Positions 27,519 through 47,564 of a stretch of 64,000 nt of DNA are shown here, in pieces. The translations under genes were made by a program, and so were the position numbers. Within the stretch, counting starts at the first letter, position 1. Every line of letters starts with the position of its first letter. The stretch is from Elusimicrobiaceae bacterium. GTDB lineage: Bacteria > Elusimicrobiota > Elusimicrobia > Elusimicrobiales > Elusimicrobiaceae. Below the pieces are notes generated by a model. That model did no database searches and had not been told where the DNA came from. It was given only the letters and a program-made list of their open reading frames with translations. The DNA lies in NCBI GenBank assembly GCA_016283355.1, contig JAEEMS010000021.1, forward strand, positions 1-64,000, written 5' to 3'.

Positions 27519-28340
27519 CTATATTGCCATCAGGCACATCTTATATTTATCGGCTAAGGCAATGACTTCTTCCAGTTCCATGACAAGGGTTTTTTCCGCT
27601 TCAAAAGCCAATACGCTAAACCCGGCTTTGCGCATGTTACGCAGCGTTCCCGTGCCGATGACGGGAAGATCAAACCGGTTATCTTGATCGGGCCGTGCCA
27701 CTTTTACGACGGCAGCCGGAGCATTTTTATCTTCGTTATGTTGATACAATTCTCCCGCCCGCAAAATACAGCGATCGGTTCCTTCCATGCCTTCAACGGC
27801 AATAACAGCTTTCCGGCTGACAACGCAGGTTAATCCAATATCCAAACGAGCTATTTCTTTTGCGATTTGGTAACCGTATTGGATGGTTTGTTGTTCCGGT
27901 TCGGTGGGCTGACGTTGGGTTAACACACCTTTTTTTGGAAAAAAATCCTCTAAAAATAAAGCAGAATTTTCACAAATGAATCCTTCTTTCTGTATTTCTT
28001 CAATCAAACGCGAAAGGATGTGTTTGGTTTGCATGCTTTTTAAGGATGCCAAAAATTTGGCCCCGCGGAGGTCCGGCATCATGTTGGTAAATACGGAAAC
28101 GTGTTGCACGCGTCCGGCCATGACAAATCGTTGTACTCCGTTGGATTTGAAAAATTCGATTCCGGCTCCCAGTTGCCCTATTCGGATCCATTTAAATTGG
28201 GCAACATCTTTATAATCCTCTTCGCGGGCATTTGATTTGAGTCCCAGTACGTAAACGGAATAACCCTTCTCCATCGCTTTTTTTGCGATGGTAACCGGCA
28301 TTTTCCCTTCGCCTGCAATTATCCCCAGTTTATTCGTCAT
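27519..28340 (-). CDS. lpxI: UDP-2,3-diacylglucosamine pyrophosphatase LpxI
   Basis: Hydrolyses UDP-2,3-diacylglucosamine to lipid X and UMP, the fourth step of lipid A synthesis, in organisms that lack LpxH. The protein (273 aa from the ATG at 28340) has the LpxI start KLGIIAGEGKMPVTIAKKA and the C-terminal catalytic domain (about 135-273) with TCVVSRKAVIAVEGMEGTD and a VKVARPDQDNRFDLPVIG segment. A GTG at 28349 would add three residues; I prefer the ATG because family members begin just before KLGIIAG. It overlaps the end of lpxA and completes the lpxD-lpxC-fabZ-lpxA-lpxI block. Confidence 0.95.
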   Translation of the reverse strand: MTNKLGIIAGEGKMPVTIAKKAMEKGYSVYVLGLKSNAREEDYKDVAQFKWIRIGQLGAGIEFFKSNGVQRFVMAGRVQHVSVFTNMMPDLRGAKFLASLKSMQTKHILSRLIEEIQKEGFICENSALFLEDFFPKKGVLTQRQPTEPEQQTIQYGYQIAKEIARLDIGLTCVVSRKAVIAVEGMEGTDRCILRAGELYQHNEDKNAPAAVVKVARPDQDNRFDLPVIGTGTLRNMRKAGFSVLAFEAEKTLVMELEEVIALADKYKMCLMAI

Positions 28341-29130
28341 CCGATTCACTCATTTTGCGTTTGGCAGGGGTTAGTCCCCGGGTAGAAGCACGGCAAAAAT
28401 CAATAAAGTGCTGTACTTCTTTGCAGGGTTTACCTGCTAGCAATTCTTGGGCGGCTTCTTCAATACGTTTGTTACTGCGGAAAATTAATTTGTAAGCGCG
28501 GCGCACTTCGCTGATTACACTTCTGTCCAGACCGGCGCGGCGCATCCCGATAATGTTTATCCCAACGGTTTTTGCCCGGTCCCCTTGAGCAATACAATAA
28601 GGGGGAATATCCAACGGTACCATACTTCCGCCGGACACCATGGCCATTGTGCCGATGCGGGCGAATTGATGCACGCCTACTAAACCGGAGATCACTACCC
28701 GATCTTCTACAATCACATGGCCGGCAATTCCGGTGCTGTTGGCTACAATGACATTATTGCCCATTTGCACATCGTGCGCTAAGTGGGAGTTCGCCATCAA
28801 CAAACAGTTATTTCCAACAGTAGTGGGCTTGTCTACAAAAGTGGAACGGTGGATCGTAACACATTCGCGTATTTTATTTCCGTTCCCCATGACTACCCGG
28901 GTGTGTTCGTCTTTATAAGATAAATCTTGTGGTTTTACGCCGATAAAACAACTGGCAATCAACTCGTTATTATCTCCCATGGTGGTATTTTCAATGACAC
29001 AATGCGGGCCGATATGGTTGTTTTTGCCGATTTGTACGTCGGCGCCGATAACGGTAAACGGGCCGACAACGGTAGACGGGTCAATTTTAGCCGACGGATC
29101 AATCACTGCAGTAGGGTGGATGTTAGACAT
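28330..29130 (-). CDS. lpxA: UDP-N-acetylglucosamine acyltransferase LpxA
   Basis: First enzyme of lipid A synthesis; transfers a 3-hydroxyacyl chain from ACP to UDP-GlcNAc. The 266-aa protein has a left-handed beta-helix of hexapeptide repeats (about 5-185: IHPTAVIDPSAKIDPSTVVGP onward) and a C-terminal helical bundle. The catalytic His lies in LLMANSHLAHDVQMG near 125, and the substrate-binding INIIGMRRAGLDRSVISE is present. The gene overlaps fabZ by 8 nt and lpxI by about 11 nt. Confidence 0.97.
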   Translation of the reverse strand: MSNIHPTAVIDPSAKIDPSTVVGPFTVIGADVQIGKNNHIGPHCVIENTTMGDNNELIASCFIGVKPQDLSYKDEHTRVVMGNGNKIRECVTIHRSTFVDKPTTVGNNCLLMANSHLAHDVQMGNNVIVANSTGIAGHVIVEDRVVISGLVGVHQFARIGTMAMVSGGSMVPLDIPPYCIAQGDRAKTVGINIIGMRRAGLDRSVISEVRRAYKLIFRSNKRIEEAAQELLAGKPCKEVQHFIDFCRASTRGLTPAKRKMSESDDE

Positions 29131-29608
29131 GGGAAGTTTCTCCTAGAATAAAATTGAGCGTAGCTTGTGCGCACAGTTTGCCGTTTACATAGGCCTCGGC
29201 ATAGATTTTAGAAATTTTGCCCAAACGAATAATCTCAAGCGGCATGAGAAGTAGATCGTTAGGGTGGACTATACCGCGGAATTTTGCTTCTTCGATACTT
29301 AAAAACAAAGGGATCCCCTTGCCTTTGCTGACGCCGGCCATAGCCGCTCCTCCAAAAGCTTGGGACATACTTTCAATTACGAGTACCCCCGGCATAACCG
29401 GACTGCCCGGGAAATGCCCTTTAAAATAGTATTCATCGGCACGTACCTGGTGAACGCCGATGTATTTTTTGTTTTCTTCCAATACCCGGATTTCATCCAC
29501 CATTAAAAAAGGGTCGCGGTGGGGAATGCTTTTTTTAATTTTTTCCGTACCGTACGTAGTTATAACAGGTAAAGTTAAAAAATTTTTTAAATTGTGTTTC
29601 TCTTTCAT
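29123..29608 (-). CDS. fabZ: 3-hydroxyacyl-ACP dehydratase FabZ
   Basis: Hot-dog-fold dehydratase of fatty acid elongation, drawing on the same 3-hydroxyacyl-ACP pool as LpxA and LpxD. The 161-aa protein has the catalytic loop KGHFPGSPVMPGVLVIESMSQ-like region (about 64-84, His then Glu) and IPHRDPFLMVDEI near 28-40. In several phyla fabZ is fused to lpxC; here they are separate genes with a 4-nt overlap (ATGA). It has about ten residues more than usual at the N-terminus (MKEKHNLKNFLTLPVITTYG). Confidence 0.96.
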   Translation of the reverse strand: MKEKHNLKNFLTLPVITTYGTEKIKKSIPHRDPFLMVDEIRVLEENKKYIGVHQVRADEYYFKGHFPGSPVMPGVLVIESMSQAFGGAAMAGVSKGKGIPLFLSIEEAKFRGIVHPNDLLLMPLEIIRLGKISKIYAEAYVNGKLCAQATLNFILGETSHV

Positions 29609-30429
29609 TTTGTCTCCGTATTGGCCAAAAGCAGGGTGGCAAACAAGATGTTGTGCTTGTGTCCGCCGCCCTCACAAACGATTTTTAAAGGGGGCAACTT
29701 TTTGCCGGTCAAACTGATGTCTCCGATTAAATCCAATAGTTTATGGCGAACCGGTTCCTCCGGAAAGCGCAATTCATTAATAAATTTGTCTTTCCCGATA
29801 ATAACGGCATTTTCCAAATTTCCACCTTTGGCGAGTCCGTGTGCTTTTAAAAATTCCAATTCTTCTTCGAACCCGAAGGTGCGGGCCCGGGCAATTTGTT
29901 GTCGGTAATTTTCCAAATTAAATTCCAATGTATACTCTTGGTAGGCAACCACGGGATTTTTGTGGCGATAGATAAAAGTAAATGTCAAACGGTCCGCCGG
30001 CTGAGCACTGTAAGAAATATTTCCGCAAGAGTAGGTGATTTTTTGTTTGATATTCAAAACAGGTTGCGGTTGTGATAATTCTTTTAACCCGGCTGCCAAA
30101 AAAGCTTCCAAATACACATCACTTGCCCCATCCGTAACGGGAGGTTCCGGGCCGTCCATTTCAATTGCTACGTCGGTCAATCCGGCCGCATGCAAAGCAG
30201 ACAACACGTGCTCTACGGTCCATACTTCCGCAGTTTCGTTTTTTAAATTAGTGCCACGCAGGGTGGACCCTACACTGGAAACATGTGCCGTGATGGGTTT
30301 GGACTGTGGGAGGTCTTTGCGCAAAAAAGTAATTCCGTTCTCGGCCGGTTTAAATGTCATAACGGAAGGAATCCCGGTATGGAGTCCGATTCCTTTTACA
30401 GTGGTAGTGGTGGCAAGTGTTTTTCTCAT
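29605..30429 (-). CDS. lpxC: UDP-3-O-acyl-N-acetylglucosamine deacetylase LpxC
   Basis: Zinc deacetylase and committed step of lipid A synthesis. The 274-aa protein shows the zinc ligands in TVEHVLSALHAAGL (His near 75) and in RHKLLDLIGD (His and Asp near 232-240), the general-base region DGPEPPVTDGASDVY, and the KGGNLENAVIIG loop. A C-terminal GGGHKHN supplies the catalytic His. Length is slightly below the 300 aa common in Proteobacteria. It follows lpxD by 1 nt. Confidence 0.97.
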   Translation of the reverse strand: MRKTLATTTTVKGIGLHTGIPSVMTFKPAENGITFLRKDLPQSKPITAHVSSVGSTLRGTNLKNETAEVWTVEHVLSALHAAGLTDVAIEMDGPEPPVTDGASDVYLEAFLAAGLKELSQPQPVLNIKQKITYSCGNISYSAQPADRLTFTFIYRHKNPVVAYQEYTLEFNLENYRQQIARARTFGFEEELEFLKAHGLAKGGNLENAVIIGKDKFINELRFPEEPVRHKLLDLIGDISLTGKKLPPLKIVCEGGGHKHNILFATLLLANTETK

Positions 30430-30430
30430 A

Positions 30431-31507
30431 TTAAAATCCTAGCAATTTTTTAAGTCGTTGGAAAAAAGACATTTCTTTCATGACCTGTGCTTGCTTTTGA
30501 AAAGCGCGAAATTCCTTATACATTTCAGGCATTTTTCGCAAAATAGCTTGTTGTTTAAATGCTTCCCGTTGTGGCATAGCCGGGTATCCAAAATAAGCGG
30601 CTCCGGCCGGAACGGAAGAAATGACACCGGATTGGGCGCCGATTTGGGCTCGGTCTCCAATCGTCATGTGCCCGGCCAGTCCTACCTGCCCGGCCAAAAT
30701 TACACCGTTGCCAACATCGGTTGTTCCCGCAATACCGACTTGAGCGCAGAAAATATCGCTCATACCTGTGCGAACGTTGTGCCCTACTTGAACAAGATTG
30801 TCGATTTTGGTGTTATCCCCGATAATGGTGCTGGCAATTTTCGCACGGTCGATACAAGAATTGGATTGTATTTCTACATCGTTACCTAAAATTACATTTC
30901 CTATTTGGGGGATTTTCTGATGACGTCCTTCATGGAAAGTAAAACCAAATCCGTCAGACCCAATTTTGGCTCCGGCCTGTAAAATAACATAATCTTTTAA
31001 GATACAATATTCCCGGATAACTACTTGCGGGTAAATGTAACAATTTTTACCAATGGTAACATTTTTACCGATATAGCATTGCGGAAAAATAACGGTATTA
31101 TCTCCGATGGTTACGTTGTCCTCAATAACGGTATAGGCCCCTACGGAAACGTTGTTCCCCAGTTTTGCACTTTGGCTGATAACGGCGGTAGGATGAATAC
31201 CCGGGGTATGTTTTTGTTGCAAACCGTCTACGTATTTTAAAAGTAAGATGAATGCCCATTCCGGATTTTTGGCATAGAGAAGGGCTCCGTTAAAAGGGAG
31301 AACTTTTCCTTTGGCCTGTTCCGGTACGATAACAGCGGACGCTTGTAATTTTTCCAAAACATCCATTTTTTCTAAAGAGGTAATGTAACAAATTCCTCCT
31401 TCGTGGGCATTTTCCAATGAGCACAAGCCGGTAATAACGGCAGAGGAATCATTTTGTAGTTCCGTTCCTGTAATACGGGCGGTTTCGGTTAAAGTTAAGT
31501 GAAGCAT
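30431..31507 (-). CDS. lpxD: UDP-3-O-(3-hydroxyacyl)glucosamine N-acyltransferase LpxD
   Basis: Third acyl-transfer enzyme of lipid A synthesis. The 358-aa protein has an N-terminal uridine-binding domain (about 1-100), then a hexapeptide-repeat beta-helix (about 105-320) with HPTAVISQSAKLGNNVSVGAYTVI and the catalytic His in LVQVGHNVRTG near 246. A C-terminal helix (about 330-358) is the ACP-binding element. It lies directly after skp and before lpxC, the classical order. Confidence 0.96.
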   Translation of the reverse strand: MLHLTLTETARITGTELQNDSSAVITGLCSLENAHEGGICYITSLEKMDVLEKLQASAVIVPEQAKGKVLPFNGALLYAKNPEWAFILLLKYVDGLQQKHTPGIHPTAVISQSAKLGNNVSVGAYTVIEDNVTIGDNTVIFPQCYIGKNVTIGKNCYIYPQVVIREYCILKDYVILQAGAKIGSDGFGFTFHEGRHQKIPQIGNVILGNDVEIQSNSCIDRAKIASTIIGDNTKIDNLVQVGHNVRTGMSDIFCAQVGIAGTTDVGNGVILAGQVGLAGHMTIGDRAQIGAQSGVISSVPAGAAYFGYPAMPQREAFKQQAILRKMPEMYKEFRAFQKQAQVMKEMSFFQRLKKLLGF

Positions 31508-31515
31508 ATTCTCCT

Positions 31516-32421
31516 CTAATTACCGCGTTTGCGGTATTTCTTTGATTTTTTGAGCCGGTTGATAAAGTCCAATGTTACATTGACCGGTTTTTCGCCATAG
31601 AGCACTTCATCTTTTCGTACGATAGCACCGATGTTACGCTTCTTGGCGAAGGTTTTGATTTCGCTGTAAATATCCTGCAGAATTTCTGTTACCTCTTTTT
31701 TCTCTAATTTTAAAATTTCTTCACGCGTTTGGTAACGGTAATTATCAATAAAAAATTCCCGTTCGGCGATAATTTTTTTATTGGCGGCAATTTTGGAAGT
31801 TAAATCCTCGGTTTGAGCGTTTGTGTTAAGCGGACTGGTAGCAACGGGGTCTGCCCCGGCAAAAGTCAACCGGTTAAGCAAATTATCAAAAGATAAAGTA
31901 TCTTGTTGTTCGGCGGGACGCGGTTGTAGTTCCTGTGCTTCCACGACCACTCGTTCATAAAAAGGAGTCAATTCCTGCAATTGTCTTGATAAGTTTCTGT
32001 TTTCTGCTTGTAATACTTGGATGAGTTGTTTGGCCGCTTGCACTTCTTCCTCTTTTGCCAAGATTTTTAAACGAATTTGTTCTTTTACGTCTACGGTGCG
32101 TGGGTGTGCATTAAATGCCTCATCAATATCTACAAACGCTACGGTTAAACAAGAAGAGGGGGAAGATGTTTCCTCCTCTTTATTCGTAGCAATTTCTTCT
32201 TTATTTTTTTCTTGTGATTGTGCGAGCAAATCAGCTTTTTTCCCTACTTGTGGCTGCGGAACTTCTTCCCGTTTTGTTTGTGTTTCTTCCTCACGGACGT
32301 TGGCCAAAATGGCAGCCACGGCGGCTTCTTCTTCCTTGGAAAGAGTGGAGGGATCCATCTCTTGTGCGGAAGCTGCCAGTGTTCCTACCAATATGCAACT
32401 CAACAGCCACGTTTTTTTCAT
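31516..32421 (-). CDS. OmpH/Skp-like periplasmic chaperone, enlarged form
   Basis: The gene sits in the classic skp position between bamA and lpxD. The 301-aa precursor has a signal peptide (MKKTWLLSCILVGTLAASAQ). The Skp core starts late, with CLTVAFVDIDEAFNAHPRTV near residue 91, corresponding to the family's VGVVDVQRVF start, followed by a coiled-coil arm and ending in VTLDFINRLKK. Extra parts are an acidic, Glu/Lys-rich N-terminal extension (about 20-88) and a Pro/Thr/Asn-rich insert (about 170-200) in the arms. Ordinary Skp is about 160 aa. It should guard unfolded outer-membrane proteins on the way to BamA. Confidence 0.8.
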   Translation of the reverse strand: MKKTWLLSCILVGTLAASAQEMDPSTLSKEEEAAVAAILANVREEETQTKREEVPQPQVGKKADLLAQSQEKNKEEIATNKEEETSSPSSCLTVAFVDIDEAFNAHPRTVDVKEQIRLKILAKEEEVQAAKQLIQVLQAENRNLSRQLQELTPFYERVVVEAQELQPRPAEQQDTLSFDNLLNRLTFAGADPVATSPLNTNAQTEDLTSKIAANKKIIAEREFFIDNYRYQTREEILKLEKKEVTEILQDIYSEIKTFAKKRNIGAIVRKDEVLYGEKPVNVTLDFINRLKKSKKYRKRGN

Positions 32422-32428
32422 ATTTGTT

Positions 32429-34801
32429 CTACATCATATTTGAAATATTGAAGTAGAAGTGAGACCGATCTTGTCCTGCAGCATGGTTGAGACCATACCC
32501 CCAATCAATGCGGATGGGCAAGGACGGTGTAGTAAAGCGTAATCCTACCCCAACCCCGGCTTTGAATTGATTCTCATTTGGGCCAAGGGAGAAATCCAAA
32601 TCATCAAAATGGTTCCAGGAGTTCCCCATGTCAAAGAAGAACGCAAATTGCGCCATATTGCGGCGGCCTTCACGGGCCAACGGGAAGCGTAATTCCGCGT
32701 TCATCACGTAATACATGTCTCCGCCGTATTTCGGGCCGATTTCCCCGGCGCGTTCATAACCGCGGATGGTGTCGGCACCACCCAAATAAAATTTTTCAAA
32801 GGCCGGGACAAAGTTCGTGCGTCCGTAAGCGCGCACAGATCCAATTTTGTTAGAAAGGACAAATACAATCGGATAATTTCCGCCTACGTTAAGCACGGTG
32901 TAATTGAAAATAGAGCGGGCATTTAAGTACCACAAATCTAAATCACCGCCAATCGGTCCGCCGGCCAACGCTAGCCCAATAGAGTTTCTCCAACCGGAAG
33001 TGGGGTCCCACATATTGTCGCGCGTGTCAATTGCGAAATCAGCGCTGACGGTGGACAAATTGGTACGGCCTTCGGCGATACATTCCGCACTGTCGGTACC
33101 GGGCGGGCATTTATAAGCGTCATCAATGTCATAAAGGCGGATATTTTCAAACGAATAACCAAAAGATAGCTGGTAAATATCATCATTGAACCGCGGTCCC
33201 ACCTTCACGCGTCCCCCGATGCGTTTTTCGGTATAGGCCTGATTGTCCGTATAGAAAGAACGATAACGGCGTGTGTTAAATAAATCTACCCCCAGGGATG
33301 TAGGATGATCATAAATCCAGGGAGTGGACCAACTGACGGTATAATCCAAAATCTCTTTCCCGAACAACGTACGTGCCGATAAGCGCTGTGCGCGGCCGAA
33401 AAGATTTAGGTGGTTTACGGAAAGTTCCCCATATAATCCGTCCATGGAGCTCATTGCCAACCCGGCAGTAAACATACCGGGCCGTCCTTCCACGACGTTA
33501 AAATCTAAATCCACTTTGGTAGGATCGGCGGTGGGTTGTAAGCCGATTTGCACATCGTTAATGAATCCCAAATTCATGATTTTGGTTTGGCTGCGTTTAA
33601 TTTTGCTGTTGTCGTACAAATCCCCGGGATGAACGGACAGTTCGCGGGTAAACACGTGCTTTTTGGTATCTTTGTAGCCGGTTACGTCTACGTGATCAAT
33701 GTAGAAAATGTGCCCTTCCGAAATATCAAACGTTAAATTCAATTTACCGTCTTCAATCTTTTTAATGGGATCAATGCGGGCTTGCAAATATCCTTTGTCG
33801 GCATATTGCTCTTGAATCGCCATGATAGAATCGTCAAAATCTTTTTGGTTATAAAGTCTCCCTTCGCGGAAGAAAATTTGTTTGTCTAATTCTTCCTTGG
33901 TGAACACATTGTTTCCCTCGAAAGAGACCGTTCCGAAATCTACCTGCGGCCCTTCCGTTAAATCGTAAGAAATGTCGGCCAATGTTTTATCTTCGTTGAA
34001 AGAAACCTTCGGAACGGACAAATTGAATTCACTGTATCCTTTGTTACGTCCGTAAAGCATCATTTTGGTCCAATCTTTTTGCAAATTTTGCGGTTTATAA
34101 ACCCGCCCGGTACGGTTGGAAGCTTTTTTGATGATTTTCTCTTTCGGCAGTTCCGTTTCTTCTTGACTGTTTAATGTTACATTGAGTACGCGGACCCGTT
34201 CTCCTTCGTCGATAATCAATTTTACGTATACAACACCCTGTTCTTCGTTCTTTTCCAGCTCATAAGAAACCTTCGCGTTTACGTAACCTTTTTCGGCATA
34301 TTTGGCTTGAATACGGGGAAGATCGGCTTGCAATTTTGTTTCATTAAACGGGTCTTTGATTTTAAGCGTCATGGCTTGGGTAATTGCGCCTTTGCCCAAG
34401 TGTTTTCTCCCTTCGTATGTCAGGCGGTCAAAAATCGGTTTTTCTTCCACAAGGTAAGTAAGGCGGGTACAAGGGTGGAGCTCATCCGTCTCTTTGTCTT
34501 TGCGAGCCCCTTCCATGGGGGAAATATCTACCTCTACTCCGTTAAATGCCCCTAAAGCGGATATGGCTTCCGCATCGTCGGCGACGAAAGTTCGTTCGTA
34601 AAGTGTTCCCTTTTTGGCATGAGCAACTTTTGTTACCGAACGTTTCCGTATGTTTTTTAAGCCGCTGACGTCAATATCACAAATCATCCAAGGGCCGTCA
34701 TTATCAGGTTCTGTTAGTACGGTGGCCTCCTCCGCGCGCGCGTACGAAAAAACAAAAACTAAAAGTGTTAAAACGGTGCTCCAGTAACGCAATTTATTCA
34801 C
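32429..34801 (-). CDS. bamA: Outer-membrane protein assembly factor BamA
   Basis: Core of the Bam complex that folds and inserts outer-membrane beta-barrels. I place the start at GTG 34801 (790 aa): aaaggag lies 6 nt before it and a signal peptide follows directly. An upstream ATG at 34843 would run through the rpmB terminator hairpin. Five POTRA domains (about 35-430) precede a 16-strand barrel (about 435-790). The late barrel has the conserved FYLGGADTIRGYE (VRGF/IRGY lid-lock motif in loop 6) and ends in HFYFNISNMM. Confidence 0.96.
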   Translation of the reverse strand: MNKLRYWSTVLTLLVFVFSYARAEEATVLTEPDNDGPWMICDIDVSGLKNIRKRSVTKVAHAKKGTLYERTFVADDAEAISALGAFNGVEVDISPMEGARKDKETDELHPCTRLTYLVEEKPIFDRLTYEGRKHLGKGAITQAMTLKIKDPFNETKLQADLPRIQAKYAEKGYVNAKVSYELEKNEEQGVVYVKLIIDEGERVRVLNVTLNSQEETELPKEKIIKKASNRTGRVYKPQNLQKDWTKMMLYGRNKGYSEFNLSVPKVSFNEDKTLADISYDLTEGPQVDFGTVSFEGNNVFTKEELDKQIFFREGRLYNQKDFDDSIMAIQEQYADKGYLQARIDPIKKIEDGKLNLTFDISEGHIFYIDHVDVTGYKDTKKHVFTRELSVHPGDLYDNSKIKRSQTKIMNLGFINDVQIGLQPTADPTKVDLDFNVVEGRPGMFTAGLAMSSMDGLYGELSVNHLNLFGRAQRLSARTLFGKEILDYTVSWSTPWIYDHPTSLGVDLFNTRRYRSFYTDNQAYTEKRIGGRVKVGPRFNDDIYQLSFGYSFENIRLYDIDDAYKCPPGTDSAECIAEGRTNLSTVSADFAIDTRDNMWDPTSGWRNSIGLALAGGPIGGDLDLWYLNARSIFNYTVLNVGGNYPIVFVLSNKIGSVRAYGRTNFVPAFEKFYLGGADTIRGYERAGEIGPKYGGDMYYVMNAELRFPLAREGRRNMAQFAFFFDMGNSWNHFDDLDFSLGPNENQFKAGVGVGLRFTTPSLPIRIDWGYGLNHAAGQDRSHFYFNISNMM

Positions 34802-34821
34802 AACATTCTCCTTTAATAAAA

Positions 34822-34849
34822 AAGCCCGCACTAAAGGTAGCACGGGCTT
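34822..34849 (-). terminator. Rho-independent terminator of rpmB
   Basis: Minus-strand hairpin aagcccgtgct/agtgcgggctt (11 pairs, two G-U) followed by tttttatt. It separates rpmB from bamA and rules out the longer bamA start. Confidence 0.85.
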
Positions 34850-36366: not shown

Positions 36367-36375
36367 TGGTATAAT
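36367..36375 (+). promoter_or_regulatory. Extended -10 (TGGTATAAT) of the TldD-like gene, leaderless configuration
   Basis: TATAAT at 36370-36375 preceded by TGG. Only 7 nt (caaaagt) separate it from the ATG at 36383, with no SD. A start site at the usual distance falls on the start codon. Confidence 0.65.
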
Positions 36376-36382
36376 CAAAAGT

Positions 36383-38071
36383 ATGAAAAAATTTCTTTTC
36401 TTTTTTTTACTTTTGTTTCCCTTCACAGTTCAAGCCCAACAGAACTGTTCCGTTGAAAAGCAGAAACCAATTCAATTACTAACGGCCGAGTTAAAACGTG
36501 GATTTAAAGTGCTTAAAAAGCAAAATCCACCCATTTATTACTTGTCCTACACATTGCAGGACGAAATTTCGCAAGGGGTGTGGGTAACGCAAGGCGGCAT
36601 CGAAAAAATATGGGACCAAGCCCATTTTGCATTGACAGTTTTTCCGCGGGTGGGGAATTCCCAACTGGATAATACGCGCACGCTTAAAAAAGGGCAAACT
36701 TTTTACGGACTAATAAAGAAAGATGTTCCGGGTGTAGAGGGAGACGGTAAAGCGTTTACCAACGCGGTATGGTTGCTTACTCAACAAGCGGTGGAATGGG
36801 CGCAGGAAGATTACAGCGCGGTACAAGCGGATGCGCATATCTCTTCCGAACGGTTAGATGACTCCCCGGATTTTATGTTCCCTCCGAAGGAAACTTTTTG
36901 CCGGGAACAAAATTTTTCACAGTTTGATTTGGAAAGAATCACGCAGCTTTTATTGAAAGCATCCAAACGCGTAAACGGAAAATCATTTGTATTGTCCAGT
37001 TCTTTTAAATTTTCCAATGATTATGGCTACCGTTATTTTGTGGACAGTGTAGGCACACGTTTGAAAACGCCTTCTCAACTTGTGCGCTTGACCTATAGCA
37101 TTGAAGGGCAAACGGAAGACGGAACGGAGTTGTCGCGTGGAAAATCGTACGATGTGCTGACGGAAGAAGAATTGCCTTCGGAAGAGGACTTTTTGGCAGC
37201 GGTGGACCGTTCCATTTTAGAGCTTGAGCAGCAAATTAAAGCCCCGGATGCCGACCCTATCACGGTACCGGCTATTTTGCAAAATAAAGCAATGGGCGTT
37301 TTTGTACACGAAGTGTTAGGGCATCGTGCGGAAGGTCATCGCCAAAAAGAAGATTCGTTCGGCCGCACCTTTACGGATAAAGTTGGGCAACCGATTGTTT
37401 CCTCCTTATTAACCATTGTAGATGATCCGACATTACCCTATTTTAACGGAGAGCCGTTGCGCGGATTTTACGAATATGATAGCGAAGGGGTCAAAGCGGC
37501 TCCGGCCCTGTTGGTGGAAAACGGTGTCTTAAAAAATTTCTTAATGAGCAGCAGCCCGATTCATCGGTTCGCTAAATCAAATGGACATGGCCGTGCAGAA
37601 CCCGGCCGGCGGCCTGTTTCTCGTATGGGGAATACGCGCGTGATTGCTTCAAAGACAGTTTCTTACGAAGACCTTGAAAAGCAACTTCTGGAACAAATAA
37701 AGGAGCAAGGGAAACCCTACGGTATTATTATAGAAGACCTTTCCGGCGGATTTACAATTACCGAAACGTTTGCTCCTCAATCATTTAAGTTGGAACCTAC
37801 GTTCATGTACCGGCTCTATCCGGATGGTCGTAAAGAAGTAGTGCGTGGGGCAGACATTGTAGGTACACCGCTTGTCAGTTTTAAAGAAGTGTTGGCCGCA
37901 GCGGATGACTACGCTGTTTTTAATGGATCTTGTGGGGCAGAATCGGGTTGGGTGCCTGTATCGGCAATCGCGCCCAGTGTTTTGTTGCGGGCATTAGAGT
38001 TGGAGAAAACACAAAAAACGGCTCAGAAACTTCCTATTTTACCGCCACCTTCATCGGAGGTAAACCCATGA
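36383..38071 (+). CDS. Exported TldD-family metalloprotease with intact HExxxH
   Basis: TldD/PmbA-family zinc peptidase. In E. coli, TldD carries HExxxH and TldE lacks it; together they trim unfolded peptides such as microcin B17 precursor, in the cytoplasm. This 562-aa protein has the catalytic FVHEVLGHRAEGH near residue 307, the GFYEYDSEGVKA and GNTRVI elements, and a C-terminal NGSCGAESGWVPVSAIAPSV. Unusually it starts with a signal peptide (MKKFLFFFLLLFPFTVQAQ, cleavage after AQA), so the active form should be periplasmic. It lacks an SD and appears leaderless. The partner gene overlaps its stop by 4 nt (ATGA). Confidence 0.88.
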   Translation: MKKFLFFFLLLFPFTVQAQQNCSVEKQKPIQLLTAELKRGFKVLKKQNPPIYYLSYTLQDEISQGVWVTQGGIEKIWDQAHFALTVFPRVGNSQLDNTRTLKKGQTFYGLIKKDVPGVEGDGKAFTNAVWLLTQQAVEWAQEDYSAVQADAHISSERLDDSPDFMFPPKETFCREQNFSQFDLERITQLLLKASKRVNGKSFVLSSSFKFSNDYGYRYFVDSVGTRLKTPSQLVRLTYSIEGQTEDGTELSRGKSYDVLTEEELPSEEDFLAAVDRSILELEQQIKAPDADPITVPAILQNKAMGVFVHEVLGHRAEGHRQKEDSFGRTFTDKVGQPIVSSLLTIVDDPTLPYFNGEPLRGFYEYDSEGVKAAPALLVENGVLKNFLMSSSPIHRFAKSNGHGRAEPGRRPVSRMGNTRVIASKTVSYEDLEKQLLEQIKEQGKPYGIIIEDLSGGFTITETFAPQSFKLEPTFMYRLYPDGRKEVVRGADIVGTPLVSFKEVLAAADDYAVFNGSCGAESGWVPVSAIAPSVLLRALELEKTQKTAQKLPILPPPSSEVNP

Positions 38072-39672
38072 AAAAATTTCTTTGGTTTGTATTTATTTTA
38101 GTTTTTGTCCCTTTGGGGAGGGCCTCTGCGGGGGATGAATTTTTACGTGCCATGAAAGACGAAATGGCGCGTTCCAAAAAAGAATTGCGTTTGGCGGGCA
38201 ACCCCGATCCGTATTATATCGTATATAGAATTAAAATAATACACACTCCTTTTGTAGTGAAAGCCAATATGGGATCTTTGTACCGGACAGAAACCAATTC
38301 TCGCCCGGTTGTAAATTCGGGGGTATTATTATCTTCCGGCAATGAGAAACAGGATAGTTTTGGCGTAGAGGGGAATCATTGGTTTACAAAACGCGACGTC
38401 GGGCAAAGTTACGCGGCCTTGCGCCATAGCTTGTGGGAACTAACCAACGAGGCCTATTTGACAGCCAGCGACCTATATGCCCGTAAAGAGGCCTATCGTC
38501 GTCGAAAAGCAGCGGGAAAAACCAATGTCGATTTTATTCCGGGGGAGCAATCGGTATATACGGAAGAACCGCCCCAATTACCTGCGTTAGATAAGGAGCA
38601 ATTGCAGGATTTTGCTAAGGCCTTATCTGCCAAGGGAAAAAATTTGCGTGACGTATATGATTTTTATGTGGAACTTTCCCCGGAACAAGCCGAACGGTAT
38701 TTTCTGAATAATTTGGGAGGGCAAGTGCGATACGGTTGGGCCGCAGTTACCGCAACTTGGAAGGCCCTTTTCCGTACGCAGACCGGTTATAATTTACAAT
38801 TAGAGCGGCAAGTGATTTTCGATGCATCAAGTGATTGGCAGCCTCGTTTAGAAAAAGCCATTGATGAATTTATAGTACACTTGCAAAAGATGCAATCCGC
38901 CCAAACGGCAGAAGCGTATATAGGGCCTGTTTTGTTGATGCCGGCCGCCGCCGCACAAATGTGGGAACGTACTTTTGTGAAAAATATGATAGAGTTTAGC
39001 CCTCTTGTTGCTTCGGACGGGACGGAAACGTCGGGAGGAAGTTTTAAAGATAAAATCGGTTTGCGGGTTGTATCTGCGGAAGTGGATGTATATGATAAAC
39101 CCTTTCTGCGCGAATACAACGGGTGGAGATTGAAAGGATTTACAATTAGAGATGATGAAGGGGTCACTCCCAAAGAACTGACGCTTATCAAAGACGGTTA
39201 CTTGCGGGAAATTCCTACTTCTTCCCGCCCGTTTAAAAAGGGAATTCAAAGCAACGGTCATGGCCGTTCTTTGCAAGAATTTCCGCGGGAAACGCTTACC
39301 AATATGGTGGTAGTACCTCATCATCCTTTGTCACAAGAAGCATTGGAATCTCGTTTGTTGGAGATGTGCCGTGCGCAAGAATTAGCATACTGTTACATCA
39401 TTCATGATTTGAGTGAGGATATATTGGAACGTGATATGATGGAACGGATTTATACTTCCGACGGACATAAAGAACCGGTAATGGGATTGGAGATAGAAAC
39501 TACGTTTTCTCCCCGATTGTTGCGGGATATCCGGGCAGCGGGGGATGAATCTTCTGTGTTAAACACAAAACAAAATATTTCAATTGTTACCCCTGCGTTA
39601 TTGTTGGAAGAAATGGAGCTGGTTCCAACGGATAAAAAACCGGAACGTCCTCCTTTGGTCCCAAAACCGTAA
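38068..39672 (+). CDS. Exported TldE/PmbA-like partner lacking the zinc motif
   Basis: The ATG at 38068 gives 534 aa; it overlaps the TldD-like stop by 4 nt and has SD ggagg 7 nt upstream, so an earlier GTG/ATG in the shared region can be dismissed. It begins with a signal peptide (MKKFLWFVFILVFVPLGRASA, cleavage after ASA). The fold matches the preceding protein, for example LRGFTIRD-like and SNGHGRSLQEFPRE regions. Where HEVLGH should stand there is MWERTFVKNMIEF, so no zinc site. This mirrors the TldE half of the E. coli heterodimer and suggests an exported TldD/E-like pair (inference). Confidence 0.85.
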   Translation: MKKFLWFVFILVFVPLGRASAGDEFLRAMKDEMARSKKELRLAGNPDPYYIVYRIKIIHTPFVVKANMGSLYRTETNSRPVVNSGVLLSSGNEKQDSFGVEGNHWFTKRDVGQSYAALRHSLWELTNEAYLTASDLYARKEAYRRRKAAGKTNVDFIPGEQSVYTEEPPQLPALDKEQLQDFAKALSAKGKNLRDVYDFYVELSPEQAERYFLNNLGGQVRYGWAAVTATWKALFRTQTGYNLQLERQVIFDASSDWQPRLEKAIDEFIVHLQKMQSAQTAEAYIGPVLLMPAAAAQMWERTFVKNMIEFSPLVASDGTETSGGSFKDKIGLRVVSAEVDVYDKPFLREYNGWRLKGFTIRDDEGVTPKELTLIKDGYLREIPTSSRPFKKGIQSNGHGRSLQEFPRETLTNMVVVPHHPLSQEALESRLLEMCRAQELAYCYIIHDLSEDILERDMMERIYTSDGHKEPVMGLEIETTFSPRLLRDIRAAGDESSVLNTKQNISIVTPALLLEEMELVPTDKKPERPPLVPKP

Positions 39673-39688
39673 CGGGATTTGTATTTGG

Positions 39689-39710
39689 ACCCTCGGGATT
39701 TACCGAGGGT
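39689..39710 (+). terminator. Rho-independent terminator of the TldD/E-like operon
   Basis: Eight-bp stem accctcgg/ccgagggt, 6-nt loop, followed by ttttttat on the plus strand. It lies between convergent operons. Confidence 0.88.
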
Positions 39711-39719
39711 TTTTTATAT

Positions 39720-43397: not shown

Positions 43398-44132
43398 CTA
43401 GAAATTAGTCACATAATGAATTTGTAAAATTCGTTCACTTTCACTGCCACGACCGATGCGGCGTACGGCCGCATCCAGTGCCAAAGAAGGATGTAAGTAA
43501 AAACGCATGCCGGCATTAAAACGAGAATCACGTACGTTACGGATATTATCCCACTCGGTTAAGACGGCGGCATAATCGGCAATTTTGTAATATAGTCCGG
43601 TAAAAAGGTAGAATTCATCCCATTCGAAATCAGAGAAATTTACCCCGCCGGACATATTTAGCCCCGGAATAATTACTTCACGCGATAAGGCCACATAACC
43701 TCCGCGGCGGTTGTCGAGATATTTTTTTGTTTTTGTGTAATGGCGGTTTCTGTCATAGCCATAACCATACCGGCGTCCGTCGTAACCGATGGAAATAGCG
43801 GGCAGATAAAGATTCCCATCATATACTTTCCATTTGGCCTGAAAGTCCGGGGCCAGAACTCGTACAGAGGAGGACGAACCTAACAGTTCGTGTGCAGCTA
43901 CGCTTACCCCCAGGTTGATGCGCGGATAAATTCCGAAATCAATCGTTTCCATGACTGTTCCGTGATCATAAGCGCGTGTGAGGAAAGAAGCTTGGTAACG
44001 GTCCAGTGTTTCCGAGGTGGGGATATCCAGTACCAACGTCTCGGAGTTGATAGGGTCCGCCCCTTGCGCATTCAAAGCCAACGGGGCAAACACGGTAAAT
44101 AATAAAAGCATCCAAATTGTTTTTGCGTTCAT
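43398..44132 (-). CDS. Exported, probable outer-membrane beta protein of unknown function
   Basis: 244 aa with signal peptide MNAKTIWMLLLFTVFAPLALNA. The mature part is rich in Tyr, Arg and Gly with amphipathic strands (INLGVSVAAHELLG, GGYVALSREVIIPGLNMSGG, AGMRFYLHPSLALDAAVRRIG) and ends in an aromatic residue (YVTNF), as outer-membrane barrels do. It vaguely recalls small YjbH-like barrel proteins, but I do not claim the family. It lies 7 nt before the HAMP gene and 10 nt after the lipoprotein gene. Confidence 0.68.
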   Translation of the reverse strand: MNAKTIWMLLLFTVFAPLALNAQGADPINSETLVLDIPTSETLDRYQASFLTRAYDHGTVMETIDFGIYPRINLGVSVAAHELLGSSSSVRVLAPDFQAKWKVYDGNLYLPAISIGYDGRRYGYGYDRNRHYTKTKKYLDNRRGGYVALSREVIIPGLNMSGGVNFSDFEWDEFYLFTGLYYKIADYAAVLTEWDNIRNVRDSRFNAGMRFYLHPSLALDAAVRRIGRGSESERILQIHYVTNF

Positions 44133-44142
44133 ACGAGTTCCT

Positions 44143-44694
44143 TTATAAAAATGTGCGTACGTCCTTCACGGTAGGTTCTAAGATATAACGTACGTTGTGT
44201 GTATAAATTCGTTCCCGGGCGGCATTAAAATCGTTACTATCCCGCGGGAAAGAGAGCGTAACAATGCCCTTCTCTATACTGCTGACGTTGGAAACGACCC
44301 CTTTGTGCCAACGGGCGGTACGGGATTTATCATCCGGCTCTATGGGGTTGTCGTAGTTGCGCAACACTACCGCACCCATTTGTAAAAATCCGCTTTCTAC
44401 GGGTTCCGTTTTTAAAATTACATCTTTCGTCCAATAGGTTTTTCCTTTACAAGGGCCGTCAATAAACGTAACTTTATAATAGGGATGATTTTCGGTAGGC
44501 CGTTTTTTGAGGTTGGCCAGCGAATAGGTGGCATAGGGTTTACCGACATCGGTACAGGCCGCAAAAATGTGGGAATTGATATAGCGTTCGTAAGATTGAT
44601 GCGGATCTTCCCGGTCATAAGCGGACTGTTGGCTGCGGCAGCCGGCGGTCAAAAGAAGGACTCCGACGATAACAAAAATTCCGAAATTTTTCAT
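44143..44694 (-). CDS. Lipoprotein of unknown function
   Basis: 183-aa lipoprotein; signal ends VLLLTAGC (Cys near 19). The mature part has beta-rich segments, including GPCKGKTYWTKDVILKT (about 79-95) and MGAVVLRNYDNPIEP (about 105-119), which suggest a small SH3-like or beta-barrel module, but no family is recognised. SD aggagc lies before the ATG, and a long hairpin plus a TATAAT box lie just upstream, so it may have its own promoter. Confidence 0.6.
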   Translation of the reverse strand: MKNFGIFVIVGVLLLTAGCRSQQSAYDREDPHQSYERYINSHIFAACTDVGKPYATYSLANLKKRPTENHPYYKVTFIDGPCKGKTYWTKDVILKTEPVESGFLQMGAVVLRNYDNPIEPDDKSRTARWHKGVVSNVSSIEKGIVTLSFPRDSNDFNAARERIYTHNVRYILEPTVKDVRTFL

Positions 44695-44707
44695 AACAGC
44701 TCCTGAA

Positions 44708-44749
44708 AATGGTAAATGAGGATGTAGAAATCCCCATTTACCATTATAC
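44708..44749 (-). promoter_or_regulatory. -10 box followed by a 5'-leader hairpin
   Basis: On the minus strand a TATAAT (44744-44749) is followed immediately by an 11-bp inverted repeat aatggtaaatg/catttaccatt (arms 44708-44718 and 44735-44745) that runs up to the SD of the lipoprotein gene. There is no U-tract, so it is not a terminator. A hairpin at the very 5' end of an mRNA can protect it from decay (inference). Confidence 0.5.
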
Positions 44750-44771
44750 CCATTTTCCGGATGAAATAAAA

Positions 44772-46766
44772 CTATTTTTTATCAGGAGGGGGAACAGAAA
44801 ACGCTTGCTCAAATGCTTGTAGTGCATTTCCCCCGCTTTCAGCAACGGAACGGTTGAAAAATTCTTTTGTATTCCCCAGGTTGTTTTTGACTGCCTCTTG
44901 GTTAAGTTCTTGTGCAATCTGGGCGACATAGTCCCTCGTCTCTTTAATTAAAACAGCGGAACTTTCCACTACACTATTGCTAAGTTTCCCTGCAGGTACC
45001 CCGTCTTCTTCCAGTATTGCGCTTTGACTGTCATAGAGAAAAGCGGTACTGTTTGTCATTTCCTGTAAGGTACGGGCTTGCGAGCCGTTGAGCATCAGCA
45101 AAAGGGGGACTTCTTCGTCGGAATTGGGATTTCTCATCACGCGGGCCACTTTTTGTTGATATTCGGCCCCGACATCGGATGTGTAGATTACATGAGGCGG
45201 AGCAAATTTTTCATAATCTTCGGCGGCTTTAGCGGCTGTTTTTGCACGCAATTCTTCAGAGGCGTTCTTCGGAAGCTGACTGTCACGGTAACTAATAAAA
45301 GCCGATTTGTCTTTGGGGTAGATGTTGGCCGGGTCCCCAACGAAAGATCCGTTAGTCATGCGAATGGAATCCCCCAAAGCCGGATCTTTTTGGATTTTGT
45401 TTGCCACATAAAAACAGGAATTTTCCTTTTTGTCACAACCGTGGTGCTTAAACTGCCATTCATAAATTTCATTGGTAATGACTAATCCTTGTTCATTTTG
45501 GGGAGGAGCGGTAAAAGTATTGTCTTCATCTTTTAAATTAAGCGGCCCATTGGCAATACCCAGTACGGGCGTAAGGGGTATGTTCGGTAAGGGAATGCGA
45601 GTAATTTTGCTGAAAATTTGTTGATTTTGTATTTGGGTTTCTCGTATCGCTTGTTCCGAGGCACCGGGAATAACTTCTCCGGCGGGGCATCCGCTTGTAA
45701 CCGGCAACGATTCATTTTGACAGGCACCTCTGAAATTTTCCAAAGCAGATTGATCGGTAAAATACCTTTCCATGCGTGCGCGTTGCCACTCTTTTAATTG
45801 TTCTACGAGACGATGTGTAGTTTCTTCGGAAAATTGTTGTTTTTGTACACGTTGTTTCTCATCAAGTGGTTCCGGAAATTTTGAATTAGCCAGCGTTTCT
45901 ACCGCATGTTGAAGTAAGGACTCCGGATTGAGCATGCGGTACAAATCGCGCGTTCGCTGTCCTCTCTTTGCGGAAGCGGAAATCCCTTCAGGGATATCAA
46001 AAGAAAAGTCAGGAGAGGTCGCTTTGGCGGTGGAGGAGGTTATTTCGGTTGGGTTCCAGTTGGTTTTATTGACTGCTTGGGTTGATACAGCTGTTGTCTC
46101 TTGGGAACCGCCGGCCATTTGCTGGAATTGGCCGGGAGTTATGGCTTGTGCCTCGTCAAATCCAAAAAAATGTTTTATCGGGCTGACTAATTTGTGCCAG
46201 TAACTTTCTTTTTGTGTGGAAGGAACTCCTATTTCCGGCTGTCCCAACGCCGGGTTATACGTAGCGGCCTTCTGTTGGCGTATGTAAGTGTCGTACGGAT
46301 TATCTTTGATATTAATTTCATGCATTCCCTGAGGGCTACTTTCCGGATATACCTGTCGGGCAAGAACCCAGTTTCCTTCCTCATTTAAAACAAGCGCATC
46401 GGACATATCAACCCGGGTAGGTTGTTCCCACGAGGTTCCTTCTTGGGAGGGTTGCCTGGTATCTTGCGCAACGGAAGGAACGGTTGCGGCCGCTGTTCGT
46501 GCAAGGGGAACCTGCGTTCCGAACATTTGATCCACTTGTTGGGCCGTCAAAACGGTAGTGGGTTTTTCTTTGGTAGGACGACCGAAAAGAGAGGCCAGCC
46601 GGTTCATCAAAGCGGTGAGTGGGTTGGACGTAAAAATTTGCGGTTCGGCCTTCACGTTAAGAGAAGCCGTATTGGATTTGGAATTGTCCAAAAAGGGCAA
46701 AAGAAGAAAAACAGTTAGGGCTACACATAATATAAATAAGGTAATTTTTAGCGTGTTTTTTTTCAT
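44772..46766 (-). CDS. Large envelope protein of unknown family
   Basis: 664 aa with an N-terminal hydrophobic helix (about 7-26: LKITLFILCVALTVFLLLPF), likely an uncleaved anchor with the rest periplasmic. The middle (about 50-300) is low-complexity and rich in T, Q, S and P. About 270-350 has helical, Gln/Glu-rich sequence. Cysteines occur in two groups (ACQNESLPVTSGC near 345-358; HGCDKKENSC near 435-445), suggesting disulfides outside the cytoplasm. About 490-660 is alpha-helical and ends in PPPDKK. No enzyme motif is seen. It follows the S1C protease gene by 39 nt and may be its substrate or partner (speculative). Confidence 0.6.
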   Translation of the reverse strand: MKKNTLKITLFILCVALTVFLLLPFLDNSKSNTASLNVKAEPQIFTSNPLTALMNRLASLFGRPTKEKPTTVLTAQQVDQMFGTQVPLARTAAATVPSVAQDTRQPSQEGTSWEQPTRVDMSDALVLNEEGNWVLARQVYPESSPQGMHEINIKDNPYDTYIRQQKAATYNPALGQPEIGVPSTQKESYWHKLVSPIKHFFGFDEAQAITPGQFQQMAGGSQETTAVSTQAVNKTNWNPTEITSSTAKATSPDFSFDIPEGISASAKRGQRTRDLYRMLNPESLLQHAVETLANSKFPEPLDEKQRVQKQQFSEETTHRLVEQLKEWQRARMERYFTDQSALENFRGACQNESLPVTSGCPAGEVIPGASEQAIRETQIQNQQIFSKITRIPLPNIPLTPVLGIANGPLNLKDEDNTFTAPPQNEQGLVITNEIYEWQFKHHGCDKKENSCFYVANKIQKDPALGDSIRMTNGSFVGDPANIYPKDKSAFISYRDSQLPKNASEELRAKTAAKAAEDYEKFAPPHVIYTSDVGAEYQQKVARVMRNPNSDEEVPLLLMLNGSQARTLQEMTNSTAFLYDSQSAILEEDGVPAGKLSNSVVESSAVLIKETRDYVAQIAQELNQEAVKNNLGNTKEFFNRSVAESGGNALQAFEQAFSVPPPDKK

Positions 46767-46805: not shown

Positions 46806-47564
46806 TTATTTTTCGTTAGAATTCCGTTTTATAAGTCGCATTAAAATGGTCCAAGCTTTTTTAATATGGGCTAAAATCGGGTTTTCTTTAATAGAAACTG
46901 GATCGCTTACTGTTGTTTGCGGTAGCGAAAATCCCGCTTCTGTTATTAATTGGCGGAGATAATTTACGGGAACTGCAAAATTTAAGTTTTGGTCCCCTTC
47001 TCCGCTGTAACTGGCAAAAGCCACACATACCACTTCTCCTTTCGCATTAAAGACGGGGCTGCCGCTTGAGCTCGGCGAAATCGGCGCACTGATTTGATGC
47101 CAAAGGGTTCCGTCCTCTTTTTGACGTACCTGGCTGATTAAACCAGAGGAAACGGTATTTTGCAGTCGGCGTGGATTTCCGATGACGGTAATGGTTTGCC
47201 CGGGTAAAACCGTATCGGAATCCCCCAAAACAACATAGGGCAGATTGCGGGCTTCTATTTTTAACAAGGTTAAATCTACTTTATCTGCGGAGGCCATTTT
47301 AATGGCTTCCCCAGATGTTACTCCTGTATTGAATGTAATATTTGTAAATATTGCATCCTGTACCACATGTTTGTTAGTAGCAATAAGCCCGTCGGGGGTT
47401 ACAACAAATCCGGTTCCTGTGAAGGTGCTCCCGTCCTTTTTGGCCACATTTACCGCCACCACTGCCGGAGAATTTTCCCGAGCGATGCGGACATGGTCAT
47501 TTTGCCCCCATGCGGGGAATACACATCCAACGGTAAGGCACAGCAAAAGGCATTGTCTTTTCAC
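46806..47564 (-). CDS. Exported trypsin-like (S1C) serine protease without PDZ
   Basis: 252 aa beginning at GTG 47564, with a signal peptide (MKRQCLLLCLTVGCVFPAWG). The chymotrypsin fold is visible: AVVAVNVAKKDGSTFTGTGFVV, catalytic His in IATNKHVV near 67, Asp in VDLTLLKIEA near 100, and the nucleophile in SPSSSGSPVFN near 168. DegP-type proteases have GNSGGP there, so this site is divergent (SSSGSP). There is no PDZ domain; the end is a short basic helix. A TGCTATAAT box ends 6 nt before the GTG and no SD is visible, implying a leaderless GTG start. Confidence 0.85.
   Translation of the reverse strand: MKRQCLLLCLTVGCVFPAWGQNDHVRIARENSPAVVAVNVAKKDGSTFTGTGFVVTPDGLIATNKHVVQDAIFTNITFNTGVTSGEAIKMASADKVDLTLLKIEARNLPYVVLGDSDTVLPGQTITVIGNPRRLQNTVSSGLISQVRQKEDGTLWHQISAPISPSSSGSPVFNAKGEVVCVAFASYSGEGDQNLNFAVPVNYLRQLITEAGFSLPQTTVSDPVSIKENPILAHIKKAWTILMRLIKRNSNEK

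What the first reader, a model, noticed from the sequence alone, without database searches (positions are those of the whole stretch)
36383..39672. An exported TldD/TldE-like protease pair
TldD/TldE of E. coli act in the cytoplasm. Here both members, one with HEVLGH and one without, start with clear Sec signal peptides ending in AQA and ASA, and they overlap by ATGA. A periplasmic heterodimer that degrades peptides through an enclosed chamber would be a distinct functional setting, perhaps for envelope peptides or secreted ribosomally made peptides.
Basis: partly seen in the sequence, partly recalled or inferred. Interest (0 to 1): 0.7.

Follow-up and report, generated by a model that had tools for sequence, protein, structure and literature searches.

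The report
Exported TldD/TldE-like protein-trimming enzyme pair
Two overlapping genes encode a secreted relative of the TldD/TldE peptide-trimming enzyme, part of a wide bacterial branch that probably works outside the cytoplasm and seems to have gained its inactive partner subunit independently of the familiar E. coli enzyme.

Summary
D has HEVLGH plus the distant Cys517, the full TldD metal site; E has neither. Predicted folds match TldD (Z 35) and PmbA/TldE (Z 26). The genome, an Elusimicrobiaceae member by its relatives, has no cytoplasmic TldD/E: PF01523 occurs in 0 of 90 family genomes, the D relative in 87 of 90. Relatives occur in many phyla, often beside a separate cytoplasmic pair. 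A matched rule finds signals in 108 of 129 exported D and 75 of 84 exported E, against 3 of 36 and 1 of 29 cytoplasmic ones. Exported D and E form one side of a 100/100 branch; a tree joining D with D and E with E is rejected, so the dead partner probably arose independently of TldE. In two Eisenbacteria-related genomes D and E are fused in one frame with a single N-terminal signal. Best reading: a periplasmic heterodimeric threading peptidase, substrate unknown. Novelty: an uncharacterised exported branch of a known peptidase superfamily.

The parts
36370..36375 (+). TATAAT -10-like element with upstream TGG (extended -10), seven bases before the D start codon; the D message may be leaderless
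   Evidence: read directly; printed with 32 other loci; a consensus match only
36383..38071 (+). exported TldD-like metallopeptidase subunit (D), 562 aa
   Evidence: PF19289 7.3e-29; closest solved chain E. coli TldD 5nj5_A 6.8e-17; fold Z 35.1 to TldD
36383..36436 (+). predicted Sec signal peptide of D, cut after VQA (residue 18)
   Evidence: rule-based, not SignalP
37307..37324 (+). HEVLGH (residues 309-314), two metal ligands and the catalytic Glu
   Evidence: H309, E310, H314 in 124 of 124 exported D in the alignment
37931..37933 (+). Cys517, third metal ligand, equivalent of E. coli Cys454
   Evidence: C in 124 of 124 exported D and 15 of 15 cytoplasmic D; role in E. coli from PMC5810440
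38056..38060 (+). GGAGG ribosome-binding-like site for E
   Evidence: read directly
38068..38071 (+). ATGA overlap of D stop and E start
   Evidence: exactly -4 in 48 of 105 pairs measured
38068..39672 (+). exported TldE-like subunit without catalytic residues (E), 534 aa
   Evidence: PF19289 3.3e-15; fold Z 26.6 to PmbA, 26.1 to E. coli TldE
38068..38130 (+). predicted Sec signal peptide of E, cut after ASA (residue 21)
   Evidence: rule-based, not SignalP
39690..39715 (+). hairpin CCCTCGG-GATTTA-CCGAGGG followed by TTTTTT, likely terminator
   Evidence: read directly

Best explanation
D and E are made from one message, each is sent across the inner membrane by its own Sec signal, and they assemble in the periplasm into a hollow 1:1 heterodimer. 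D carries the only metal site (H309, H314, C517, with E310 as the catalytic Glu); E is a dead shell subunit. As proposed for E. coli TldD/E, unfolded polypeptide N-termini would be threaded into the chamber and cut into short peptides with little sequence preference. The likely job is general: clearing or recycling unfolded periplasmic polypeptides and peptide fragments, and possibly trimming peptides from outside. Shown here: genes, overlap, signal-like starts, metal-site residues, folds, conservation, pairing, fusions, separate phylogeny. Inferred: actual secretion, heterodimer, threading, activity. Guessed: the physiological substrate.
For: Signals on both members across the family, matched controls low. 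H309, E310, H314, E317 and C517 in 124 of 124 exported D, the set lost in the 88 aligned E. D fold: TldD Z 35.1, 451 aligned, next TldE-type rows 29.6 or less; E fold: PmbA/TldE Z 26.6. 115 of 126 distinct exported D have an adjacent E; 5 had no room to tell and 6 showed none, one of these six being the fusion itself. In one family, two of the three genomes with a match carry D-E fusions with the second signal gone and a hydrophilic linker, while the third keeps two genes with two signals. The window also holds BamA, OmpH-like, LpxD, LpxC, FabA-like, LpxA-like and LpxI genes, so an outer membrane is expected. Signal peptidase I and one oligopeptide-type binding protein are in the genome. No exported type seen on plasmids or phages and no neighbour conserved across phyla: it looks like a stand-alone chromosomal function.
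Against: No SignalP, no fractionation, no complex model and no activity. The charged partners of the E. coli clamp are changed: Lys456 is Ala in 123 of 124 exported D and Asp272 is His in 111 of 124, so the cleft may work differently. The strict signal rule misses 21 of 129 D and 9 of 84 E, and 3 of 36 cytoplasmic D and 1 of 29 cytoplasmic E also pass it. Five exported D besides the fusion lack a detected adjacent E.
Confidence: 0.78

Rival explanations
1. It is an exported amide hydrolase of the same fold that acts on a small or modified substrate rather than on unfolded chains; some TldD/TldE-type proteins are called N-deacetylases.
For: The superfamily is said to include N-deacetylases (title of a 2022 review in the reference list of PMC10885120; review itself not read); the clamp residues differ from E. 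coli TldD.
Against: The full HExxxH...C site and the dead partner are kept as in the peptidase; no biosynthetic neighbours shared across phyla.
Confidence: 0.1
2. It is a dedicated maturation protease for a secreted ribosomally made peptide.
Against: No peptide-modification domain among the neighbouring genes scanned; breadth over many phyla without a common neighbour. No search for precursor peptides was made.
Confidence: 0.06
3. The hydrophobic starts are membrane anchors or are not translated, and the pair works in the cytoplasm.
For: Rule-based calls only; D has no ribosome-binding-like site in the window.
Against: Hydrophobic start with cleavage-like site is kept while its letters vary; the E start has GGAGG; fused proteins keep the first signal and drop the second.
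Confidence: 0.04

Closest known systems
E. coli TldD/TldE (PmbA), MEROPS M103, PDB 5nj5
   Same: Whole-length fold of both members; HExxxH and distant Cys in the active member, none in the other; paired subunits (PMC5810440).
   Different: Signals on both; no PF01523 match; Lys456 to Ala and Asp272 to His; genes adjacent and overlapping here but about 1 Mb apart in E. coli; separate clade.
Archaeal zinc metalloprotease TldD (NCBIfam NF040952)
   Same: Best NCBIfam match of D, 7.3e-25.
   Different: 87.6 bits against a curated cut-off of 635, so far outside the named family.
TldE/PmbA-type structures (3qtd, 1vl4, 1vpb, 6j6a)
   Same: Fold of E, Z 24.8 to 26.6.
   Different: Exported E is closer in sequence to exported D than to TldE and starts with a signal.

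Membership tests
TldD/TldE (PmbA) metallopeptidase superfamily, M103 | C-terminal PmbA/TldD domain PF19289 above cut-off in both members | tested here: met
   100.9 and 56.3 bits against 22
TldD/TldE (PmbA) metallopeptidase superfamily, M103 | HExxxH plus distant Cys metal site in the active subunit only | tested here: met
   124 of 124 exported D; set absent in E
TldD/TldE (PmbA) metallopeptidase superfamily, M103 | Overall fold of TldD and TldE | tested here: met
   Z 35.1 and 26.6
TldD/TldE (PmbA) metallopeptidase superfamily, M103 | Active only as heterodimer with enclosed chamber | not testable with these tools
   no complex prediction available; pairing and fusion are indirect
E. coli-type TldD and TldE | N-terminal domain PF01523 | tested here: not met
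   no match in either protein at E 0.1 nor in the own genome at E 0.001; the fold of that part is nevertheless spanned by the structural match
E. coli-type TldD and TldE | Score above NCBIfam equivalog cut-offs NF008006 and NF008268 | tested here: not met
   57.9 of 513 and 24.3 of 438 bits for D; E does not match them
E. coli-type TldD and TldE | D groups with TldD and E with TldE | tested here: not met
   constraint rejected, log-likelihood 185.4 lower, p-AU 2.8e-61

The most novel reading that the evidence does not exclude
A second, extracytoplasmic lineage of the threading peptidase gained its own inactive partner independently of TldE, is spread over many phyla as a stand-alone periplasmic protein-clearing machine, and has fully replaced the cytoplasmic enzyme in Elusimicrobiaceae.
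Probability: 0.5. Interest if true: 0.7.

Novelty: new variant of a known kind. Interest (0 to 1): 0.58.

Why it matters
The TldD/TldE enzymes in the passages I read act on precursors before export, inside the cell. A widespread exported branch would add a chambered, sequence-tolerant peptidase to the cell envelope. The two branches also look like a repeated experiment: an active subunit twice acquiring a dead partner. The natural fusions offer a ready single-chain construct for structure work. In Elusimicrobiaceae it is the only enzyme of the superfamily found, so its role there cannot be a back-up of the cytoplasmic one.

Tried and rejected
Third origin of a dead partner: a smaller second exported group in other Elusimicrobia families has partners without HExxxH (L176, L177, L178) that score closer to D than to E. 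The tree put them beside their own D, but holding them with exported E was not rejected (p-AU 0.173), so no third origin is claimed.

Gene neighbourhood: 590 neighbouring frames from the 80 named loci were clustered. The largest cluster (11 loci) has as its printed example a long frame on the opposite strand, at 5904-7788 in L069, where D itself lies; I read it as a shadow frame. Most of the next clusters are the local synteny of the window's own genus. Nothing shared across phyla pointed to a pathway.

Cysteine pair: C22 and C173 of D occur together in 30 of 30 distinct sequences of the first genus loci and in 4 further loci. In the other 84 sequences counted, 75 have neither, 6 only the first and 3 only the second. 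One clade only, so a disulfide is suggested, not shown.

First control for signals used the first 60 residues of cytoplasmic frames, which may miss their true starts; it gave 1 of 39 strict and 3 of 39 loose, with 6 truncated left out. I repeated it with matched regions and quote that. Rows dropped: 12 D duplicates and 12 truncated, 14 E duplicates and 2 truncated, and 2 and 2 of the 'E?' class; two frames filed there as D (L185, L189) were cytoplasmic TldD.

Fold lists: rows under Z 6 (capping protein, MHC-like) were ignored. Mobile elements: D found only partial matches in plasmids and phages, none covering 80% of the query; E found none in plasmids and was not searched in phages. SignalP, a heterodimer model and a precursor-peptide search were not run.

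Literature: the paper searches listed no paper whose title or shown abstract start is about exported TldD/TldE. I saw listings for these; for PMC5810440 passages, outline and abstract and the Discussion; for PMC10885120 passages; for PMC11495043 a term search without hits. A 2022 review of the whole superfamily (Vobruba and others, Microbiol. Res.) is cited in PMC10885120 and was not read; it may mention exported members.

Full report
The observation. D is 36383-38071 and E is 38068-39672 on the + strand, with an ATGA overlap. D has no such site but a TATAAT seven bases before its ATG, so its message may be leaderless; 16 of the 33 signal-bearing D printed have a ribosome-binding-like site.

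Where it lies. The genome (1.4 Mb, 96.3% complete) groups with genomes whose near relatives in the named collection are titled Elusimicrobiaceae and Elusimicrobiales; this identity is inferred from relatives. The pair stands alone: TerC and a tRNA-Thr upstream, then a TPR protein with a lipoprotein-like start, a patatin-like phospholipase and a TolC-type outer membrane protein downstream on the other strand. At 27519-34843 lies an envelope cluster: LpxI, LpxA-like, FabA-like, LpxC, LpxD, OmpH-like and BamA. The cell is therefore expected to have an outer membrane, and a Sec signal would lead to the periplasm or beyond. Signal peptidase I is present.

What the proteins are. Both match the PmbA/TldD C-terminal domain but not the N-terminal domain PF01523, and D lies far below NCBIfam's cut-offs for TldD and PmbA; D relatives from three records titled Planctomycetota, Myxococcaceae and Bacteroidota behave alike. 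Predicted structures are good (D pLDDT 85.7, pTM 0.85; E 84.0, 0.83). Aligned to solved structures, D fits E. coli TldD best (Z 35.1, rmsd 3.8, 451 residues), ahead of TldE-type chains (29.6 and below). E fits PmbA/TldE (Z 26.6, rmsd 2.9, 416 residues), with TldD close behind at 24.7. Unrelated rows begin at about 5. The metal site of E. coli TldD is His262, His267 and Cys454 with Glu263 (PMC5810440). The equivalents H309, H314, C517 and E310 are present in 124 of 124 exported D in a common alignment; E lacks the set. Two clamp residues differ as a mark of the group: Lys456 is Ala in 123 of 124 and Asp272 is His in 111 of 124, while 15 of 15 cytoplasmic D keep Lys and Asp.

Signals. SignalP was not available, so I used a rule (basic start, uncharged hydrophobic stretch, small-residue cleavage site). 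In a matched test the strict form is met by 108 of 129 exported D and 75 of 84 exported E, against 3 of 36 cytoplasmic D and 1 of 29 cytoplasmic E; a looser form by 127 of 129, 84 of 84, 5 of 36 and 4 of 29. Many strict misses show a visible hydrophobic start without a positive charge, or a long linker before the domain. One Myxococcales D looks like a lipoprotein (L122). In the window's genus the letters of the signals vary freely while their character stays.

Distribution. A relative of D is found in 238 of 340 genomes of the phylum at E 0.001; this count includes cytoplasmic TldD hits at about 1e-20. In the window's own family 87 of 90 genomes hold the D relative (best E 1.5e-69 or lower) and 0 of 90 have PF01523, whereas in the next family of the order 57 of 59 have PF01523 and 55 of 59 hold a D relative at 1e-100 or lower (tallied by eye from the rows). 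In the own genome the C-terminal domain is found only in this pair. So the window's family seems to have kept only the exported pair. Of 18 such genomes, chosen because they hold it, 13 also have PF01523 proteins. In the family of one Myxococcaceae genome 48 of 58 have a match at 1e-60.

Pairing and fusion. Of 126 distinct exported D, 115 have an adjacent E downstream, 5 had no room to tell and 6 showed none (19 duplicates dropped). The overlap is exactly ATGA in 48 of 105 pairs measured. One of the six is a fusion: in a genome titled Eisenbacteria a single 1124-residue frame holds D (HEIFGH, CGAE) and then E, joined by a hydrophilic stretch with no second signal. In its family 3 of 5 genomes had matches at 1e-50: a second genome has a like fusion in a 1207-residue frame, and the third has two separate genes, each with its own signal-like start. 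This is what one expects if D and E bind one to one on the far side of the membrane: once joined, one signal is enough.

Phylogeny. In a tree of 62 proteins exported D and E fall on one side of a 100/100 branch and cytoplasmic D and E on the other; exported E and cytoplasmic E are each one group with 100/100, while the two D sets are not each one side of a branch. A tree holding all D together against all E is 185.4 log units worse, p-AU 2.8e-61. With a root on the long branch between the halves this means two independent losses of the active site in a partner; the root was not inferred, and gene conversion between D and E in one branch is not excluded. The paper on the E. coli enzyme assumes that TldE is a TldD that lost its centre, which fits.

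Mechanism. E. coli TldD/E is described as a hollow heterodimer that takes only unfolded chains, binds them through main-chain contacts and trims them from the N-terminus (PMC5810440). The exported pair has the parts for the same mechanism, with altered clamp residues. I infer a periplasmic peptidase that clears unfolded chains and fragments and perhaps feeds peptide uptake; one oligopeptide-type binding protein is in the genome. Nothing found ties it to one substrate.

Verdict. What is added is the scale (a wide, unnamed exported branch), the probable separate origin of the inactive partner, the absence of the cytoplasmic enzyme in this family, and the natural fusions. It remains a member of the known peptidase superfamily, hence a new variant of a known kind.

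Noticed in passing
L123:5887-9258 and L275:204-3824: Natural in-frame D-E fusions with one N-terminal signal in two related genomes; a third member of that family keeps two genes with two signals.
   Followed up: yes
L168, L174, L176, L177, L178: A second, smaller exported group in other Elusimicrobia families, with its own partner lacking HExxxH; its origin was not resolved.
   Followed up: partly
window 36383-38071 and 38068-39672: E changes faster than D: highest identity to the window protein in the small alignments is 45% for E and 67% for D.
   Followed up: no
window 36446-36448 and 36899-36901: D cysteines C22 and C173 occur together in the genus, a possible disulfide in the mature protein.
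   Followed up: partly
window 36370-36382: TATAAT seven bases before the D start codon, and similar A+T-rich elements close to the start in other genus members, suggesting leaderless messages in some.
   Followed up: partly
window 23295-25961 (-): An 888-residue protein with a DnaA-type ATPase match only at residues 502-657; the rest is unassigned here.
   Followed up: no
window 46806-47564 (-): A trypsin-like peptidase, perhaps a source of fragments for the pair.
   Followed up: no
window 43398-46766 (-): Three neighbouring frames (244, 183 and 664 aa) without any Pfam match at E 0.001.
   Followed up: no
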